Shown here: positions 7,365-13,253 of the stretch, one piece after another | Numbering within the stretch: the first letter of the stretch is position 1 | Layout of the letters: each line of letters opens with the position of its first letter | Origin: Gammaproteobacteria bacterium | Lineage (GTDB): Bacteria; Pseudomonadota; Gammaproteobacteria; UBA1113 | DNA: 19,970 bases | Reading direction: 5' to 3' | Assembly (NCBI GenBank): GCA_019752835.1 | Contig: JAIELR010000184.1 | Location: 1-19,970, forward strand | The notes under the pieces: generated by a model | The model's database searches: none | Told to the model about the DNA's origin: nothing | What the model saw: the letters and a program-made list of their open reading frames with translations, nothing else | Made by a program: the position numbers and the translations under genes

Positions 7365-7636
7365 TTGTAACGAATGTTTTGATTAGCGCTATCCAGTTTG
7401 TTCGGAAAAGGCGACAGATAATGCTTGTGCAGTTACTGCCTAGATTTTCTGTCCCCTATAATCTATTGCGCGGAAAAAAAATCGAAAAGAGCTATGGCTG
7501 TTGTAGGGGCAAACCGCCGTGCAAAATAAAATCAGCTATACGCTGCATATTCTAGTTTGAGTCAAGAAAAAATAGCAAACTAAATGCCCACCTCTAAAAA
7601 TGCAATAGCAAGATTGGAGGCTGCAAGATATTGAAT
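7365..7636. other. non-coding stretch between the coiled-coil gene and the island
   Basis: I see no supported gene here. Only very short frames occur, for example 7584-7634 (16 codons and a stop). No clear terminator follows the preceding gene. The stretch ends at the first copy of the palindromic repeat at 7637. It could be decayed sequence from an earlier insertion, but I cannot recognise any remnant. Confidence 0.5.
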
Positions 7637-7683
7637 ATTGCGCATCGAGTATTACGCGTGTTGTATAACGCATGATGCGCAAT
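7637..7683. repeat. palindrome A, copy 1 (left island edge)
   Basis: The outer arms ATTGCGCATC (7637-7646) and GATGCGCAAT (7674-7683) are perfectly complementary. The inner parts (ATTACGC and GTATAACGC) pair imperfectly. The same sequence type recurs at 11541-11591 and 11682-11726. Together with the linker and palindrome B it forms the left copy of a composite repeat that flanks the island. Confidence 0.8.
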
Positions 7684-7728
7684 GGAAAAAGGTCGCAAGA
7701 GGCTATGTTAAGTTTTGAGGGCGTAAAT

Positions 7729-7780
7729 TAACTCGTAACTTTACGTATCGCAAACTTACGATACGTAAAGTTACGAGTTA
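7729..7780. repeat. palindrome B, copy 1: perfect 22-bp inverted repeat
   Basis: A perfect 22-bp inverted repeat (7729-7750 with 7759-7780) around an 8-base spacer. The arm starts TAACTCGTAACTTTACG and ends TATCG. It lies 33 bases upstream of the ATG of the short ATPase-like gene. The right edge of the palindrome merges with a -10-like TATACT (7779-7784). A damaged second copy is at 11639-11671. It is likely an operator and also part of the island-flanking repeat. Confidence 0.8.
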
Positions 7781-7784
7781 TACT
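7756..7784 (+). promoter_or_regulatory. possible promoter overlapping palindrome B
   Basis: TATACT (7779-7784) is a strong -10 candidate. At 17 bases upstream stands TTACGA (7756-7761), a poor -35. The right arm of palindrome B lies between and over these boxes, so a protein bound to the palindrome would block RNA polymerase. Transcription would begin near 7791, 22 bases ahead of the ATG at 7813, which has AAGGAG. Confidence 0.4.
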
Positions 7785-7812
7785 TGTGGCGTATATTTAA
7801 GGAGCTGATCAG

Positions 7813-8130
7813 ATGCTGCATGTAAGAGATTATTTCCCGTTAGGGCTTGCTGAAAAGCGAGCATTTTGGCAGACCATTTTAATGGAAGAAAAAAGTGATG
7901 CTGTTAAAGATATTTCGGCTTTATCATTGGGACAAAAGAATGTTTTGCATTATCTCGCCACTCAGCAAACAACACTTTTGACGAGTAAACAAGCCATGCT
8001 CAATTTAAAAATGTCGAGTAGTTCTATTGTCGCAGCATTGGTTGGATTAGAAGAAAAAGATGTTATCGAGAAAGTGGAAAATGAATATCAAATTATCAGC
8101 CCAATAGTGCATTATTATGCATCGAAATGA
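7813..8130 (+). CDS. truncated Arch_ATPase-like protein lacking its ATPase core
   Basis: 105 aa. The C-terminal 70 residues (36-105) align without gaps, apart from one residue, to the winged-helix end of the full-length ATPase at 10399-11526: LSLGQKNVLHYLA against LTINQRKLLIIIA, KMSSSSIVAALVGLEEKD against QMQPSSTRRALKTLQLKD, then YQIISP against YRVVDP. The first 16 aligned residues also match the N-terminus of that protein (DYFPLGLAEKRAF against NYFPTHLAMGKAF). What is missing is everything between: Walker A, Walker B and the sensor. I therefore infer an internally deleted paralogue, which may be a relic or a DNA-binding fragment still expressed. The start has AAGGAG 8 bases upstream. The stop lies four bases from the stop of the convergent ABC ATPase gene. 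Confidence 0.7.
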   Translation: MLHVRDYFPLGLAEKRAFWQTILMEEKSDAVKDISALSLGQKNVLHYLATQQTTLLTSKQAMLNLKMSSSSIVAALVGLEEKDVIEKVENEYQIISPIVHYYASK

Positions 8131-8134
8131 AAAA

Positions 8135-9925
8135 TTACCACGCGCCCATTTTAAATAAACGTCCTTGCTCGTTTTCATCGTGCAAAACTAACACTATTTC
8201 ACCTTCATCAAATACACTTGCTTTGTTTCCCCATTCGTTTGGTAAGTCAGAATCAATTAAGGTGATCACTGATTGAATGCCTAAGTTAGCATATCCACGC
8301 ATAACTGCAAGTAACTTTTCTTTTTTTCGTGAGTCTAATGATTCAAAAACACCATCGTGATAGACAAAACGAGGAAATTTTTCCTCGAGATGAGCTCGAA
8401 GTAACGCCATATCAAAAGCAATACAGAGTAACTTACGATAGGTGTGCCCTAAATCGGCACTCGTTGTATTCCCCAATCCATCAAGAATTTCAGCTTTGAA
8501 ATCAAGGTGACCTTTACTATTGACAGAAACACTTAATATAGCATTGCGATCGATTACTATTTTGACAATTTCATTAAAAAATCGTTGAATAGAAGAAAAT
8601 AAACTTGTTGAATCAGAAGTTTGTTGTTCAACGTTTTCTTCGATTTGAGCTTGAATATGTCGGCATTCATTTTTTAATTCACGAACCTCACTACGTAAGG
8701 CCTGTAAACGATGCAAAAATTCTCGCTGTCGCTCAAGTTCGATGATATCTGCACGAAGAAAAGTGAGCTCATTACTCATTTGTTTATATTTGTTGAAAAC
8801 ATCAGTATCGCTTAGAAAATCTAATGTGTCTAAACGCTGCGTATTTAATTTCAGTAGTTCAGCATTAACTTGCTTTAGTCTCGCCTCGACTTCCAGGAAC
8901 TCCTCTTGCAGATAAGCAGAACGTTCATCTGTAATGGCTCGATTAAATGCAATTAATTGTTCAAAATCTTTTTTTATCTGTCCTTCAAAAAACACATTAG
9001 CTTCTCTAAAAATTTTCGCTGCCTCATCTGGGTTAAACAAAATTTTATCCTCTTTTATGGCAGATAAGATTTTTTGACGACTTTGTTTAAGTGAGTAAGA
9101 TTCCGCGTTCAGCTCAGCAATTTCTTGATCAATTTTATCAACTAATATTTCTATTTTATCTTTATCTTCTTCTCCAAAGTCGAAACCATTAAGAAAAGCT
9201 TGTTTTTTCCCCAATTCTTCTCGCTTAATTAATAAAATACTTTCAATTTTACTAATGTCTTCGAGTGAACCACCTAGTTCCCGATTAATAATTTTTGTTT
9301 CGTTTTCTTTGATTTTTAGCTCGTCTTCTTTTTTGTAATATTGTTTGATAAGTTCATCATTAAAACCAAAAATATGTGCAAGAAAAGGTTTCCAATCGGA
9401 TGCTTTACCCTTGAATGCATCCAGGCGAAAAACATCACGAAAATCATTTTGAGAACGTAAAAGGTAACCAAGACACTTTCGGTATGACCACGGTTTGAGT
9501 GCACGAAGATCAAGCAAGCTATCTAACATTATTTGAGCACGATCGAAGGGTATATCGAGATGATCCCATTTGGATAATGCGCTGAAGTCTTGATAGCATG
9601 CAGTATGTTTTTTAAAGCTGATTTTGGTCGCACTCTCAACACTGCGGCGCATAGTCAAGTAAGAACCTTCTTCCAACTCAATTTCAAGGAAAAAAATGAA
9701 ATCTTTAAATAATTGAATATGCTTAAAGAGAAAAAACTTGAGATCCTTCGTTGAGAGTAATCCAAAATCAAGCAAACTACCTAGTGTGGTTTTACCGAGA
9801 TTGTGGGTATCTTTTTCCTTGTTCTCGGGTAATCGAATTTCTGCCAGAATGACATTCATACCTTGTGTAAACTCAATAGGTTTGAATAGAGTTGGCTGGT
9901 TTGAGTAAAGTTTAGATAATTTCAT
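8135..9925 (-). CDS. DUF2326 ABC ATPase of an ABC-3C (three-component) system
   Basis: Large cytoplasmic ATPase of 596 aa with SMC/RecN-like architecture: an N-terminal half-ATPase, a long coiled-coil middle (about 195-445) and a C-terminal half-ATPase. Walker A is NLGKTTL (42-48), a variant lacking the usual first Gly. The C-terminal DUF2326 part has TSADLGHTYRKLLCIAFD (488-505), which corresponds to the ABC signature region, and RFVYHDGVFESLDSRKKEKLL (519-539), the Walker B/D-loop region with Asp-524. Its start overlaps the end of the MC6-like gene by 14 bases, which fixes the pairing. DUF2326 proteins are the ATPase part of predicted ABC-3C conflict systems, thought to sense unusual nucleic acid and activate an effector. 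Here no effector gene is recognisable. Compared with the core genes it is markedly AT-rich. Confidence 0.85.
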   Translation of the reverse strand: MKLSKLYSNQPTLFKPIEFTQGMNVILAEIRLPENKEKDTHNLGKTTLGSLLDFGLLSTKDLKFFLFKHIQLFKDFIFFLEIELEEGSYLTMRRSVESATKISFKKHTACYQDFSALSKWDHLDIPFDRAQIMLDSLLDLRALKPWSYRKCLGYLLRSQNDFRDVFRLDAFKGKASDWKPFLAHIFGFNDELIKQYYKKEDELKIKENETKIINRELGGSLEDISKIESILLIKREELGKKQAFLNGFDFGEEDKDKIEILVDKIDQEIAELNAESYSLKQSRQKILSAIKEDKILFNPDEAAKIFREANVFFEGQIKKDFEQLIAFNRAITDERSAYLQEEFLEVEARLKQVNAELLKLNTQRLDTLDFLSDTDVFNKYKQMSNELTFLRADIIELERQREFLHRLQALRSEVRELKNECRHIQAQIEENVEQQTSDSTSLFSSIQRFFNEIVKIVIDRNAILSVSVNSKGHLDFKAEILDGLGNTTSADLGHTYRKLLCIAFDMALLRAHLEEKFPRFVYHDGVFESLDSRKKEKLLAVMRGYANLGIQSVITLIDSDLPNEWGNKASVFDEGEIVLVLHDENEQGRLFKMGAW

Positions 9926-10160
9926 TTGAGCCTACATACTCCACTGCATCAGTTTTGGGACGATACTCAATCAGCCCCATCAGGTAAAGAAAATTCAGAG
10001 CGGGTAAAAATAGAATATCACCACCAATAACCTCTTGTTTAAGATATCTTCTTAATTCGCTATAATCAACAATTCGAGCCTTCTTTAAGCAAATTAGTAA
10101 TAATAAAGAGGCATTGATAATCGTACGATCAGGATGAGAATATTTAGTCGGTCTCAGCAT
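9912..10160 (-). CDS. ABC-3C middle component, MC6-like
   Basis: 82 aa, starting at the ATG at 10160, chosen because GGGAG lies 8 bases upstream; a TTG five codons earlier is less likely. It opens with MLRPTKYSHPDRTIINASLLL, very like the (M)LPTKH.P..RSL start of ABC-3C middle component 6. It then has a helix-turn-helix-like middle (ARIVDYSELRRYLKQEV), a helix FLPALNFLYLMGLIEY and a terminal strand, all consistent with a small winged-helix adaptor. Middle components are believed to link the ABC ATPase to its effector. The 3' end overlaps the ABC ATPase gene, so the two are almost certainly translated together. The family call rests on my recognition of the N-terminal motif and the DUF2326 neighbour. 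Confidence 0.75.
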   Translation of the reverse strand: MLRPTKYSHPDRTIINASLLLLICLKKARIVDYSELRRYLKQEVIGGDILFLPALNFLYLMGLIEYRPKTDAVEYVGSNEII

Positions 10161-10377
10161 CGGCTGTACTCCCAATATCGCAGTTCCAGTACATGAAAAA
10201 TAACATTGCGCGAGTCAGTCTTTTGTTGGCTCGTATGCCTGTTTTGTTGGGAATTGCATCATAATATGTTGCTTCCCAAGTCACTGCTTTCGTTGCGGCA
10301 TGCACAGGGCTAATCCCTAAAAAGGATAACAACATCGTATAGAGAAATTTGTGAATCATAACTCTGAAAAAATTCAT
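10144..10377 (-). CDS. signal-peptide-like 77-aa ORF in the ABC-3C operon, probably a remnant
   Basis: The first 27 residues look like a Sec signal peptide: MNFFRVMIHK, a hydrophobic LYTMLLSFLGI, then SPVHA before Ala-28. The remaining 50 residues match nothing I recognise. The last 17 bases overlap the start of the MC6-like gene in another frame and run over its ribosome binding site, so the C-terminus is probably not functional sequence. It starts 21 bases after the stop of the full-length ATPase gene, with no strong ribosome binding site. An exported protein would be out of place in an ABC-3C operon, so I favour either the 5' stub of a disrupted gene or a chance ORF. The ABC-3C effector would be expected at this position and is not there. 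Confidence 0.35.
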   Translation of the reverse strand: MNFFRVMIHKFLYTMLLSFLGISPVHAATKAVTWEATYYDAIPNKTGIRANKRLTRAMLFFMYWNCDIGSTADAETD

Positions 10378-10398
10378 AAAATTGTGCTCATCAAGGGG

Positions 10399-11526
10399 TC
10401 ATACCAGCACACCATCCCTAAGCCTTAACACACTCTTGATTAGCGGATCGACGACCCTATACCTTTTTTCACTATCTATGAATATATAATCTTTGAGTTG
10501 TAAAGTTTTTAATGCTCTTCGGGTACTGCTTGGTTGCATTTGTATTAAGCTGGAGAAGTCTTTTTCATAAGGCTCTTTACTCAGCTGATCATTGGCAATA
10601 ATAATGAGGAGTTTGCGTTGATTAATTGTTAAAAGCTCAAGTTCACGTTCTGTTACCGAACGATTCTCAAGTGTATATGCTAACCACACATTCATCACAT
10701 CCGCTTCTGTAGGATAATTGCTTAACCATAGCGTTGAACAAATTTTATTTATATAATAAGGATGGCGCTCTGTTAGTTTGAATAAACATTCAATGGTTTT
10801 TTCATCCAATGATTTTTGCCATTTTTCCATAGCTGCTTTTTGTAAATGAGGGATATAGTTTTCTACCGAAATTCTATTAAGATGGATAGTATCGCATAAT
10901 TTATAAAATGGCCTTTTTTTATCATAAAACATTTCCTCCATGAGGTGTCTGCTGCTTCCTGAAAATATATAAGCTACATGAGACGACTTTTGTGCAGATT
11001 CACGTATGGCCGCCTCAATCGAATAGTTGCTGCATATTTCACCGAGTATTTGAAATTCATCCATATAAAAAATCAATTTTGTTTTTCGTGACTGTGCAAG
11101 TGCATGTAATTTTTCAAGTGCTTTATGTATATTATCAGCTTGTTTTTTCTCTTGCCTATTAATGCTCACACTCACACCAACATCTTCAAGCACGATTTTC
11201 ACTTGCATATCAGAAAAAAATTCTCTGATCAGTTTAAGTAATTTTTGAGGTGTTTTTTCCATTTTCCCCAACAGGTCAGCGATACCATTTAAAATGGCTT
11301 TTTCGATATCAGCTTCACTTAGTTCTTTATAAAAATCAATATGAGTATACGGTATTTTTATTTTTGAGAATGCGTTTAAAACAAGGCTGGTTTTACCATA
11401 TCGCCTTGGTGAAATAATAAGAGTTGGATTCACATTTTCAATATTGTGCATGAGTCTGGCTAGCTCATTTTGTCGATTACAAAAGGCTTTGCCCATCGCA
11501 AGGTGTGTTGGAAAATAGTTTGTCAC
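10399..11526 (-). CDS. Arch_ATPase (PF01637-like) AAA/STAND-type ATPase with C-terminal winged helix
   Basis: 375 aa, cytoplasmic. An N-terminal element (NYFPTHLAMGKAFCNRQNEL) leads into Walker A SPRRYGKTS (39-47), Walker B LIFYMDEFQ (151-159), a sensor-like FSGSSRHLMEEMF (188-200) and the HPYYINKICSTLW helix (255-267). The C-terminal winged helix (297-370) has QPSSTRRALKTLQLKDYI and YRVVDPLIKS. These are the marks of the archaeal-type ATPase family, which is also spread in bacteria and often mobile; its role is mostly unknown. The start is GTG at 11526, with AGAGG 7 bases before it. That ribosome binding site lies in the edge of a perfect 26-bp palindrome carrying the promoter. It heads the operon that continues into the MC6-like and DUF2326 genes. 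A deleted relative lies at 7813-8130. Confidence 0.8.
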   Translation of the reverse strand: MTNYFPTHLAMGKAFCNRQNELARLMHNIENVNPTLIISPRRYGKTSLVLNAFSKIKIPYTHIDFYKELSEADIEKAILNGIADLLGKMEKTPQKLLKLIREFFSDMQVKIVLEDVGVSVSINRQEKKQADNIHKALEKLHALAQSRKTKLIFYMDEFQILGEICSNYSIEAAIRESAQKSSHVAYIFSGSSRHLMEEMFYDKKRPFYKLCDTIHLNRISVENYIPHLQKAAMEKWQKSLDEKTIECLFKLTERHPYYINKICSTLWLSNYPTEADVMNVWLAYTLENRSVTERELELLTINQRKLLIIIANDQLSKEPYEKDFSSLIQMQPSSTRRALKTLQLKDYIFIDSEKRYRVVDPLIKSVLRLRDGVLV

Positions 11527-11534
11527 GTCATTGC

Positions 11535-11597
11535 CTCTTTACATTGCGCATCGTGCGTTACGCATATTGTATAACGCACGATGCGCAATGTAAAGAG
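11535..11597 (-). promoter_or_regulatory. palindrome A copy 2: 26-bp perfect operator with embedded promoter
   Basis: A perfect 26-bp inverted repeat (11535-11560 with 11572-11597) around 11 bases. On the minus strand it contains TTTACA (11594-11589), a 17-base spacer and TACAAT (11571-11566), an excellent sigma70 promoter reading into the ATPase gene. Transcription would start near 11559, so one arm covers the -35 box and spacer and the other covers the transcript start and the AGAGG ribosome binding site. This is the geometry of an autoregulatory operator. If a transcript instead entered from upstream, the RNA hairpin would bury the ribosome binding site. Confidence 0.7.
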
Positions 11598-11671
11598 AGT
11601 GGCAAGTGGCTAGGTTATATTATGAGGAGAGGATGAATTAACTCGTAACATTGTGATATGTAAAGTTACGA
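11544..11671. repeat. composite direct repeat, right copy (A2-linker-B2)
   Basis: This segment repeats the order and orientation of 7637-7780: palindrome A, a linker of about 46-49 bases, then palindrome B. The linkers align clearly (CGCAAGAGGCTATGTTA at 7694-7710 against GGCAAGTGGCTAGGTTA at 11601-11617) and both run into AATTAACTCGTAAC. Palindrome B here is damaged: TAACTCGTAAC (11639-11649) and GATATGTAAAGTTACGA (11655-11671) remain, but part of the left arm is lost. The two copies flank the whole ATPase/ABC-3C island as direct repeats. Confidence 0.8.
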
Positions 11672-11681
11672 CCTTTAGAGG

Positions 11682-11726
11682 TTGCGCATCGTGCGTTACG
11701 CATGATGTATAACGCGCGATGCGCAA
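11682..11726. repeat. palindrome A, copy 3
   Basis: A 17-bp inverted repeat with one mismatch (TTGCGCATCGTGCGTTA at 11682-11698, partner at 11710-11726) around 11 bases. It starts 20 bases beyond the murA stop codon on the minus strand and could act as a 3' hairpin for murA, but the T run precedes rather than follows it. A -35/-10-like TTTACA-N17-TACATC reads on the minus strand, weaker than in copy 2. Confidence 0.75.
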
Positions 11727-11745
11727 TGTAAAAAATTAGCCATAT

Positions 11746-13253
<1,508 letters not shown>

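What the first reader, a model, noticed from the sequence alone, without database searches (positions are those of the whole stretch)
7637..11726. Island with mirrored ATPase genes and direct palindromic repeats at both edges
The sequence shows a composite repeat (palindrome A, linker, palindrome B) in direct orientation at 7637-7780 and 11544-11671, with an extra palindrome A at 11682-11726. Just inside each edge sits an Arch_ATPase-type gene, and the two face each other. Between them lies an ABC-3C gene pair. The core genes on both sides (rplI, murA) are intact. Inference: an accessory module that entered as a unit, or a module whose edges are kept by recombination between repeats. Recombination between the direct repeats would delete about 3.9 kb and leave one copy behind.
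Basis: partly seen in the sequence, partly recalled or inferred. Interest (0 to 1): 0.8.

Follow-up and report, generated by a model that had tools for sequence, protein, structure and literature searches.

The report
Self-controlling ATPase genes with private operators
The odd palindromes at the two edges look like on/off switches that belong to two members of a little-known family of ATPase genes, each apparently controlled through its own private DNA switch and able to move between genomes as a gene plus its switch; here one of the two genes has lost most of its length.

Summary
The repeats are real: A (7637-7683), linker and B (7729-7780) recur in direct orientation at 11543-11671, plus a third A at 11681-11727. 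They are best read as operator-promoters, not island ends. Of 81 full-length relatives of the right-hand ATPase (X), 58 carry just upstream an array of three tandem mini-palindromes that beats all 20 shuffles; 57 have a 14- or 15-bp period. The sequence differs by gene, the period follows the protein tree, and the best-correlated of 349 protein columns lies in the recognition helix of the ATPase's own winged helix. A belongs to X, with a sigma-70-like promoter inside. B belongs to the clade of the left gene (Y), which is no longer an ATPase: 105 aa, ATPase domain deleted in frame; intact relative L122 carries a near-copy of B. Where tested, such operators lie once per genome, at the gene or a remnant, with one exception. 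Operator plus gene is shared between genomes with unrelated flanks. The window is most likely a duplicated, decayed pair X<-A-linker-B->Y around an ABC-3C gene pair. The ATPase's function is unknown; autoregulation is untested at the bench.

The parts
10399..11526 (-). Gene X: 375-aa ATPase (PF01637 type, P-loop SPRRYGKTS, Walker B MDEFQ) with C-terminal winged helix; recognition-helix Arg337
11544..11588 (-). Operator A, cognate copy of gene X: three tandem mini-palindromes, 14-bp period; perfect 26-bp arms at 11535-11560/11572-11597
   Evidence: (score 26, 0 of 20 shuffles); closest matches are upstream of L034, L021, L003, L004
11566..11594 (-). Sigma-70-like promoter of X inside operator A: -35 TTTACA (11594-11589), 17 bp, -10 TACAAT (11571-11566)
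11590..11636 (.). Right copy of the linker
11637..11671 (.). Right copy of palindrome B, decayed (about one 15-bp unit lost), no gene attached
11681..11727 (.). Third copy of palindrome A, no gene attached, just downstream of murA's stop codon
7637..7683 (.). Left copy of palindrome A, no X gene attached; symmetry partly lost (28 of 45 positions against 38 of 45 at 11544-11588)
7684..7728 (.). Left copy of the linker
7729..7780 (+). Operator B, cognate to the clade of gene Y: three mini-palindromes, 15-bp period
   Evidence: score 29, 0 of 20 shuffles; 45 of 52 positions shared with the site upstream of intact gene L122
7756..7784 (+). Promoter-like site of Y: TTACGA, 17 bp, TATACT (weak -35)
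7813..8130 (+). Gene Y: 105-aa internal-deletion remnant of a second, different ATPase of the family (N-terminal 18 aa plus winged-helix C-terminus)
8135..9925 (-). Neighbour, not part of the operator-gene units: SMC-like ABC-3C ATPase (DUF2326; PADLOC PDC-M68B)
9912..10175 (-). Neighbour: ABC-3C middle component (MC8; weaker MC6)

Best explanation
Palindromes A and B are operator-promoters of two different members of one family of self-regulating ATPases. Each intact member is a single gene: an ORC/STAND-like AAA+ domain followed by a winged helix. The winged helix binds an array of three adjacent mini-palindromes (six alternating half-sites, 14- or 15-bp period) laid over the gene's own promoter, and so controls its own synthesis. 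Paralogues have private half-sites, which is why one genome can hold several. Operator plus gene passes between genomes as a block. In the window an ancestral divergent pair X<-A-linker-B->Y has been duplicated in direct orientation around an ABC-3C gene pair; the left copy kept B and a gutted Y, the right copy kept A and an intact X; the left A and the right B are orphans. Well supported by sequence: operator architecture, its link to the winged helix, cognate pairing of A with X and of B with Y's clade. Inferred: repression (rather than activation), control by the ATP state, the order of duplication and loss. Unknown: what the ATPase does besides controlling itself.
For: Array score of at least 25 in 46 of 81 upstream regions against 5 of 300 control genes and 0 of 79 downstream regions; 58 of 81 exceed all 20 shuffles, periods 14 (36), 15 (21), 13 (1); after dropping near-copies 54 of 76. 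Period follows the protein tree of 58 genes: 3 changes, 17.3 in shuffles, 0 of 500 as low. Operator similarity tracks winged-helix identity with ATPase-domain identity held constant (46 genes, r 0.24, 0 of 2000; converse 0.09, 112 of 2000). Of 349 columns (55 genes) the best correlated is residue 337 in the recognition helix (r 0.337; largest value over all columns in 200 permutations 0.265): Gln goes with CATA (18 of 21, against 2 of 37 others), Arg with TGCG/CGCA/TGCA (9 of 10, against 0 of 48). Promoter-like sites score 9.5 or more in 44 of 59 regions, 8 of 59 shuffled; they overlap the operator by 15 bp or more in 36 of 59. Operator patterns lie at one place per genome. Operators of paralogues in one assembly are as unlike as any (20 pairs in 6 assemblies, 0.37-0.54; mean of all pairs 0.51). 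B and Y each have L122 as best and L116 as second-best partner among 81.
Against: 23 of 81 relatives show no significant array by this score, among them close relatives of X (L003, L005, L010), whose sites are visible only as palindromes. Over all 81 upstream regions, likeness to A does not rank with likeness to X (Spearman 0.10, p 0.39), although the four best matches are close relatives of X. In the blind column scan a second column, 375 in X's C-terminal tail (r 0.279), also exceeds the largest permuted value, and 319, 374, 158 and 46 exceed the 95% level of 0.221; I take the tail columns for gap effects but did not test that. The orphan A at 11682-11726 is as symmetric as the cognate one (38 of 45), so 'orphans decay' is not uniform. 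Motif classes for residue 337 were chosen after seeing the data, and independent evolutionary pairs are too few for significance (Arg 3.7 of 4 in the same direction, Gln 2.2 of 5). One of eight GRRRIGKT-type ATPase genes (L172) also had a 15-bp array above shuffles, so the array may not be confined to this branch. All tests share phylogenetic non-independence. No binding or expression data. Second operators upstream are rare elsewhere (2 of 82 genes, one being X itself), so the window is not typical.
Confidence: 0.82

Rival explanations
1. One reading: the composite repeats are the ends of an accessory island that entered as a unit (for instance a 3.9-kb circle integrated by recombination at A-linker-B) and can be lost between them.
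For: Direct A-linker-B copies flank the segment; one other locus has operator copies in direct orientation about 3.3-3.6 kb apart with a gene between (L195).
Against: Palindromes are gene-linked operators elsewhere; left and right flanks agree at 154 of 196 aligned positions, gaps aside, so any such event is old; the ABC-3C ATPase was not found in the 127 loci then held; none of the six proteins scanned is a recombinase.
Confidence: 0.25
2. Operator plus ATPase is a selfish single-gene element: the ATPase uses its own operator as its working site (replication, maintenance or mobility, as Orc1/Cdc6 proteins use origins), autoregulation being a by-product.
Against: No array on the downstream side, target duplications not tested, no transposase or nuclease family in X; a promoter inside the operator is explained by regulation alone; some copies sit at the same place in several genomes (L030, L112, L114).
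Confidence: 0.2
3. The palindromes act as RNA: terminators, attenuators or riboswitch-like hairpins.
For: Long near-perfect stems in some loci.
Against: The promoter-like -35/-10 pair often lies inside the palindrome, so much of it would not be transcribed; each array is three small palindromes with periodic half-sites; sequence follows the protein's recognition helix.
Confidence: 0.03
4. The palindromes are copies of a dispersed repeat (REP/MITE type) that happens to lie here.
For: Three A copies in 20 kb.
Against: In 36 genomes of a related order A-type sites occur in 3 and B-type sites in 4, at one place each; the reversed control pattern hit nothing for B and 2 genomes for A; a CATA-type operator occurs at one place in each of 5 of 6 genomes. 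The window's own genome could not be searched.
Confidence: 0.05

Closest known systems
ATPase_2 / archaeal AAA+ proteins SSO1545 (2fna) and PABY2304 (2qen), Pfam PF01637
   Different: 18% identity; I know of no operator for them and did not test their promoters; of eight GRRRIGKT-type ATPase_2 genes looked at here one (L172) had a 14/15-bp array above shuffles
Archaeal Orc1/Cdc6 initiators
   Different: Here the sites overlap a promoter just upstream of the gene and no origin function is indicated; solitary bacterial genes with private sites
Autoregulated winged-helix or MarR-type regulators (recalled)
   Same: Palindromic operator over own promoter; Y's remnant scores weakly as MarR_2, below cut-off
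   Different: An AAA+ motor is fused to the winged helix; six half-sites with a heritable 14/15-bp period; no second target found in the genomes searched
IniR of mycobacteria (PMC5760070, passages read)
   Same: Signal-transduction ATPase with an SSO1545-like domain that binds and activates a promoter
   Different: 818 aa, with MalT-like and SdiA-like domains; controls the iniBAC operon; no such partner here
Lamassu / ABC-3C defence systems (PMC10586767, passages read)
   Same: DUF2326 SMC-like ATPase plus middle component lie between the repeats
   Different: No effector gene recognised; its ATPase was not found near the other family members held
REP elements with RAYT transposases (recalled)
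   Same: Palindromes beside a gene with several copies at one locus
   Different: Palindromes on one side only, not dispersed in the genomes tested, no transposase family in X

Membership tests
Pfam PF01637 ATPase_2, gene X | score above the curated cut-off | tested here: met
   42 bits, cut-off 33.2
Pfam PF01637 ATPase_2, gene Y | score above the curated cut-off | tested here: not met
   no ATPase hit in 105 aa; only the two ends align
Operator-linked ATPase family described here | three tandem mini-palindromes, 14/15-bp period, directly upstream | tested here: met
   X: score 26, period 14; Y: score 29, period 15; 0 of 20 shuffles each
Operator-linked ATPase family described here | operator resembles that of clade relatives | tested here: met
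   B with L122 45 of 52; A with L034 34 of 45, L021 and L003 32 of 45
Operator-linked ATPase family described here | protein binds its own operator | not testable with these tools
   inferred from correlations
ABC-3C / Lamassu | SMC-like DUF2326-type ATPase | tested here: met
   101 bits, cut-off 28.7; PDC-M68B 1e-53
ABC-3C / Lamassu | middle component | tested here: met
   MC8 84.5 bits, cut-off 25
ABC-3C / Lamassu | effector component | tested here: inconclusive
   only short frames between X and MC8, not scanned against a library
REP/RAYT element | palindromes flank the gene on both sides and are dispersed | tested here: not met
   0 of 79 downstream; one place per genome; own genome not held
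Orc1/Cdc6 initiator | AAA+ plus winged helix fold | tested here: met
Orc1/Cdc6 initiator | origin at the binding site | not testable with these tools
   no replication data
Genomic island with empty site | empty site in relatives | not testable with these tools
   no close relative held; rplI and murA not together in relatives

The most novel reading that the evidence does not exclude
A previously undescribed class of self-contained operator-ATPase cassettes, spread over several bacterial phyla: one ORC/STAND-like AAA+ protein reads six half-sites over its own promoter, perhaps as a ring or as three dimers, has no other target in the genome, and keeps a private specificity through few recognition-helix residues, so that many cassettes coexist without cross-talk and pass between genomes as one unit. 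The operator would be both switch and identity tag of a selfish or defensive gene.
Probability: 0.3. Interest if true: 0.82.

Novelty: new variant of a known kind. Interest (0 to 1): 0.64.

Why it matters
Many PF01637-type ATPases have no known function (recalled). Here a whole branch of them comes with a readable DNA address. That gives a direct bench handle (bind, regulate, swap one helix residue), a way to find further members and their broken copies from DNA alone, and a natural set of apparently insulated regulator-operator pairs. It also warns that palindromic repeats at the edge of an 'island' may be promoters.

Tried and rejected
Transposon-like ends: rejected because arrays are upstream only and at one place per genome where tested. 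A conserved partner gene: not seen; 223 neighbour proteins (up to two on each side, loci up to L067) fall into nine pairs and otherwise singletons, and the next downstream gene lies on the same strand in 29 of 61. A conserved mini-family of gutted genes like Y: not supported; the search, limited to proteins of similar length, gave Y itself and one other (P0122, 93 aa on a 579-bp contig). Viral or plasmid carriage: no relative in viral contigs, only distant ones on 34 plasmid records (22-29% identity in the 30 rows shown) and 2 phage records. Of six plasmid genes examined upstream, three had arrays one or two points above 20 shuffles (L175, L177, L180), three did not. Array beyond the branch: of six SPRRYGKTS-type genes fetched (four of them at loci already held) five exceed shuffles with a 14/15-bp period, one only by a point, and L167 does not; of eight GRRRIGKT-type genes one (L172) does; of two other genes at L168 one exceeds shuffles with a 16-bp period. 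Clean empty site in Cryosericum: not found; the flanks of L078 lie 12.4 kb apart in one relative. Second operators 120-600 bp upstream: 2 of 82 genes (L035 and X), controls 1 of 86. Model of Y alone: pLDDT 51, not usable. Literature: eight searches (one search was on ABC-3C, on SSO1545) gave nothing on such arrays or cassettes; the library lacks most subscription papers.

Papers: PMC5760070, PMC4599002, PMC8195603 and PMC10586767, passages only; the SSO1545 structure paper seen only in a reference list; other papers only as search listings.
Full report
OBSERVATION. The repeats are as described. Palindrome A occurs at 7637-7683, 11543-11589 and 11681-11727; one strict pattern hits exactly these three places. 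Palindrome B is at 7729-7780, and a shortened B at 11637-11671. The stretches 7580-7812 and 11500-11760 agree at 154 of 196 aligned positions, gaps aside, and the linkers are homologous. The right gene is a 375-aa PF01637 ATPase; the left gene is not an ATPase but a 105-aa frame with a weak winged-helix hit. Between them lie a DUF2326 SMC-like ATPase and an ABC-3C middle component.

THE TURN. No whole genome is held for the window, so I went through the protein. The right ATPase (X) has 688 relatives in the protein database, 120 of them listed. A scan of the genome collection with an alignment of X and 51 of these found 253 stretches that encode a relative, of which the best 80 were kept. A hairpin scan of 79 of the 80 (L064, cut off within the gene, was left out) showed palindromes just upstream of many of the ATPase genes, each with its own sequence. 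By eye, each is three small palindromes side by side.

TEST OF THE ARRAY. I scored the best three-unit array (period 12 to 17) in the 150 bp upstream of each gene. From loci L001-L127 and the window, 92 distinct genes were taken, two of them the window's; 81 others are full-length (330-420 aa) with enough upstream sequence; four were dropped for short upstream sequence and five for length. 58 of the 81 beat all 20 shuffles; their periods are 14 (36), 15 (21) and 13 (1). A score of at least 25 is reached in 46 of 81, against 5 of 300 upstream regions of other genes in the same loci and 0 of 79 regions just downstream of the ATPases. Without near-copies it is 54 of 76. The 23 misses include close relatives of X (L003, L005, L010) whose sites are visible as palindromes but fail the array score.

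WHO READS THE ARRAY. Period (14 or 15), measured on DNA only, needs 3 changes on the protein tree of 58 genes against 17.3 in shuffles, 0 of 500 as low. Likeness of operators follows likeness of winged helices when likeness of the ATPase domains is held constant (partial r 0.24, 0 of 2000 permutations), much less the other way round (0.09, 112 of 2000; 46 genes). A blind scan over 349 protein columns in 55 genes put residue 337 first (r 0.337; the largest value over all columns in 200 permutations was 0.265). Column 375 in the C-terminal tail (0.279) also passes that bound, and four more columns pass the 95% level. In the model of X, residue 337 lies in helix 332-344, the recognition helix by position. 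Gln there goes with operators holding CATA (18 of 21 against 2 of 37), Arg with TGCG, CGCA or TGCA (9 of 10 against 0 of 48). These classes were set after looking; evolutionarily independent pairs agree in direction but are too few for a significant test.

WHERE IT SITS. Promoter-like hexamers score 9.5 or more in 44 of 59 operator-bearing upstream regions, against 8 of 59 shuffled, and overlap the operator by 15 bp or more in 36 of 59. In the window, TTTACA-17-TACAAT lies in and beside operator A. In 36 genomes of a related order, A-type sites occur in 3, each at an X-type gene (the reversed control pattern hit 2 genomes); B-type sites in 4: at the intact gene L122, at two broken genes (L120, L131), and alone beside another operator in G030. 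A CATA-type operator occurs at one place in each of 5 of 6 genomes. Operators of paralogues in one assembly are as unlike as operators in general (20 pairs in 6 assemblies, 0.37-0.54, against a mean of 0.51).

X, Y AND THEIR OPERATORS. B's best match among 81 upstream regions is that of L122 (45 of 52), then L116; Y's winged helix has the same two as best partners, in the same order. A's five best matches are L034, L021, L003, L004 and L008; four lie in X's well-supported clade of eight, and L003, which is not in the tree, ranks fourth in likeness to X. Over all genes, however, the ranking is not significant. X falls in a clade with 14-bp operators, and Y's closest relatives L122 and L116 in one with 15-bp operators. 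Y is a fusion of 18 N-terminal residues to the part from about residue 285 on. Its clade shows other losses: L120 is gutted, with stops, and L131 retains only the end.

MOVEMENT. Homology between loci often runs from about the outer edge of the operator to about the stop codon: L019/L020 90.7% over 1172 bp, seen again in whole genomes of one family with no shared flank beyond short repeats; L078's block lies at other sites in two other Cryosericum genomes; records titled Verrucomicrobiia and Deltaproteobacteria share it at 84%. Other copies keep their neighbours (L030, L112, L114). Neighbour genes hardly recur.

THE WINDOW. On the plus strand it reads A-linker-B-Y ... X-A-linker-B'-A'. A divergent pair X<-A-linker-B->Y, duplicated in tandem or integrated as a circle, then losing one X and one Y, gives this order except for the third A, which stays unexplained. 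The left A and right B have lost symmetry or a unit; the third A has not. rplI and murA are 0.16, 0.37, 1.15 and 1.42 Mb apart in the four genomes with both on one contig (G011, G014, G017, G018) and on different contigs in 13 others, so their neighbourhood looks particular to this lineage.

MECHANISM. The P-loop and Walker B residues are invariant in 52 aligned proteins; the fold is that of SSO1545 and close to ORC. The simplest reading: an ATP-dependent DNA-binding protein that sits on its own promoter and shuts it until its state changes. That it represses, that ATP matters and that six subunits bind six half-sites are inferences. What it does when released is unknown.

NOVELTY. Eight literature searches found no account of such arrays or cassettes. 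Autoregulation as such is well known; the family-wide geometry, private sites and block transfer make it a new variant.

Noticed in passing
L195:4373-4551 and 7793-8138: A second locus with two different operator-like arrays, each present twice in direct orientation 3.3-3.6 kb apart, around a GRRRIGKS-type ATPase gene and beside an intact SPRRYGKTS-type one (contig of L035).
   Followed up: partly
L131, L120, L130: Y-clade genes decay repeatedly: operator retained, gene gutted by internal deletion (L120, L131), or a gene-less B-like operator next to another operator (L130).
   Followed up: partly
L078:5770-5840; L020 about 7756-7866: Cassettes in Cryosericum and in G051/G052 lie near short dispersed repeats with many copies per genome; possible landing sites or only assembly edges.
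   Followed up: no
window:6787-6823: Perfect hairpin with 18-bp arms (GTAGCCCGGATGCAG...) after rplI; a similar CATCCGGGCTAC stem occurs in L130, so perhaps a dispersed repeat or terminator.
   Followed up: no
L176:964-3318: On a Stutzerimonas plasmid a distant ATPase relative sits between umuD and a Y-family polymerase gene.
   Followed up: no
window:10144-10377: Short frame (77 aa) with a signal-peptide-like start (by eye) between X and the ABC-3C genes, overlapping the start of the MC8 gene; no assignment.
   Followed up: no
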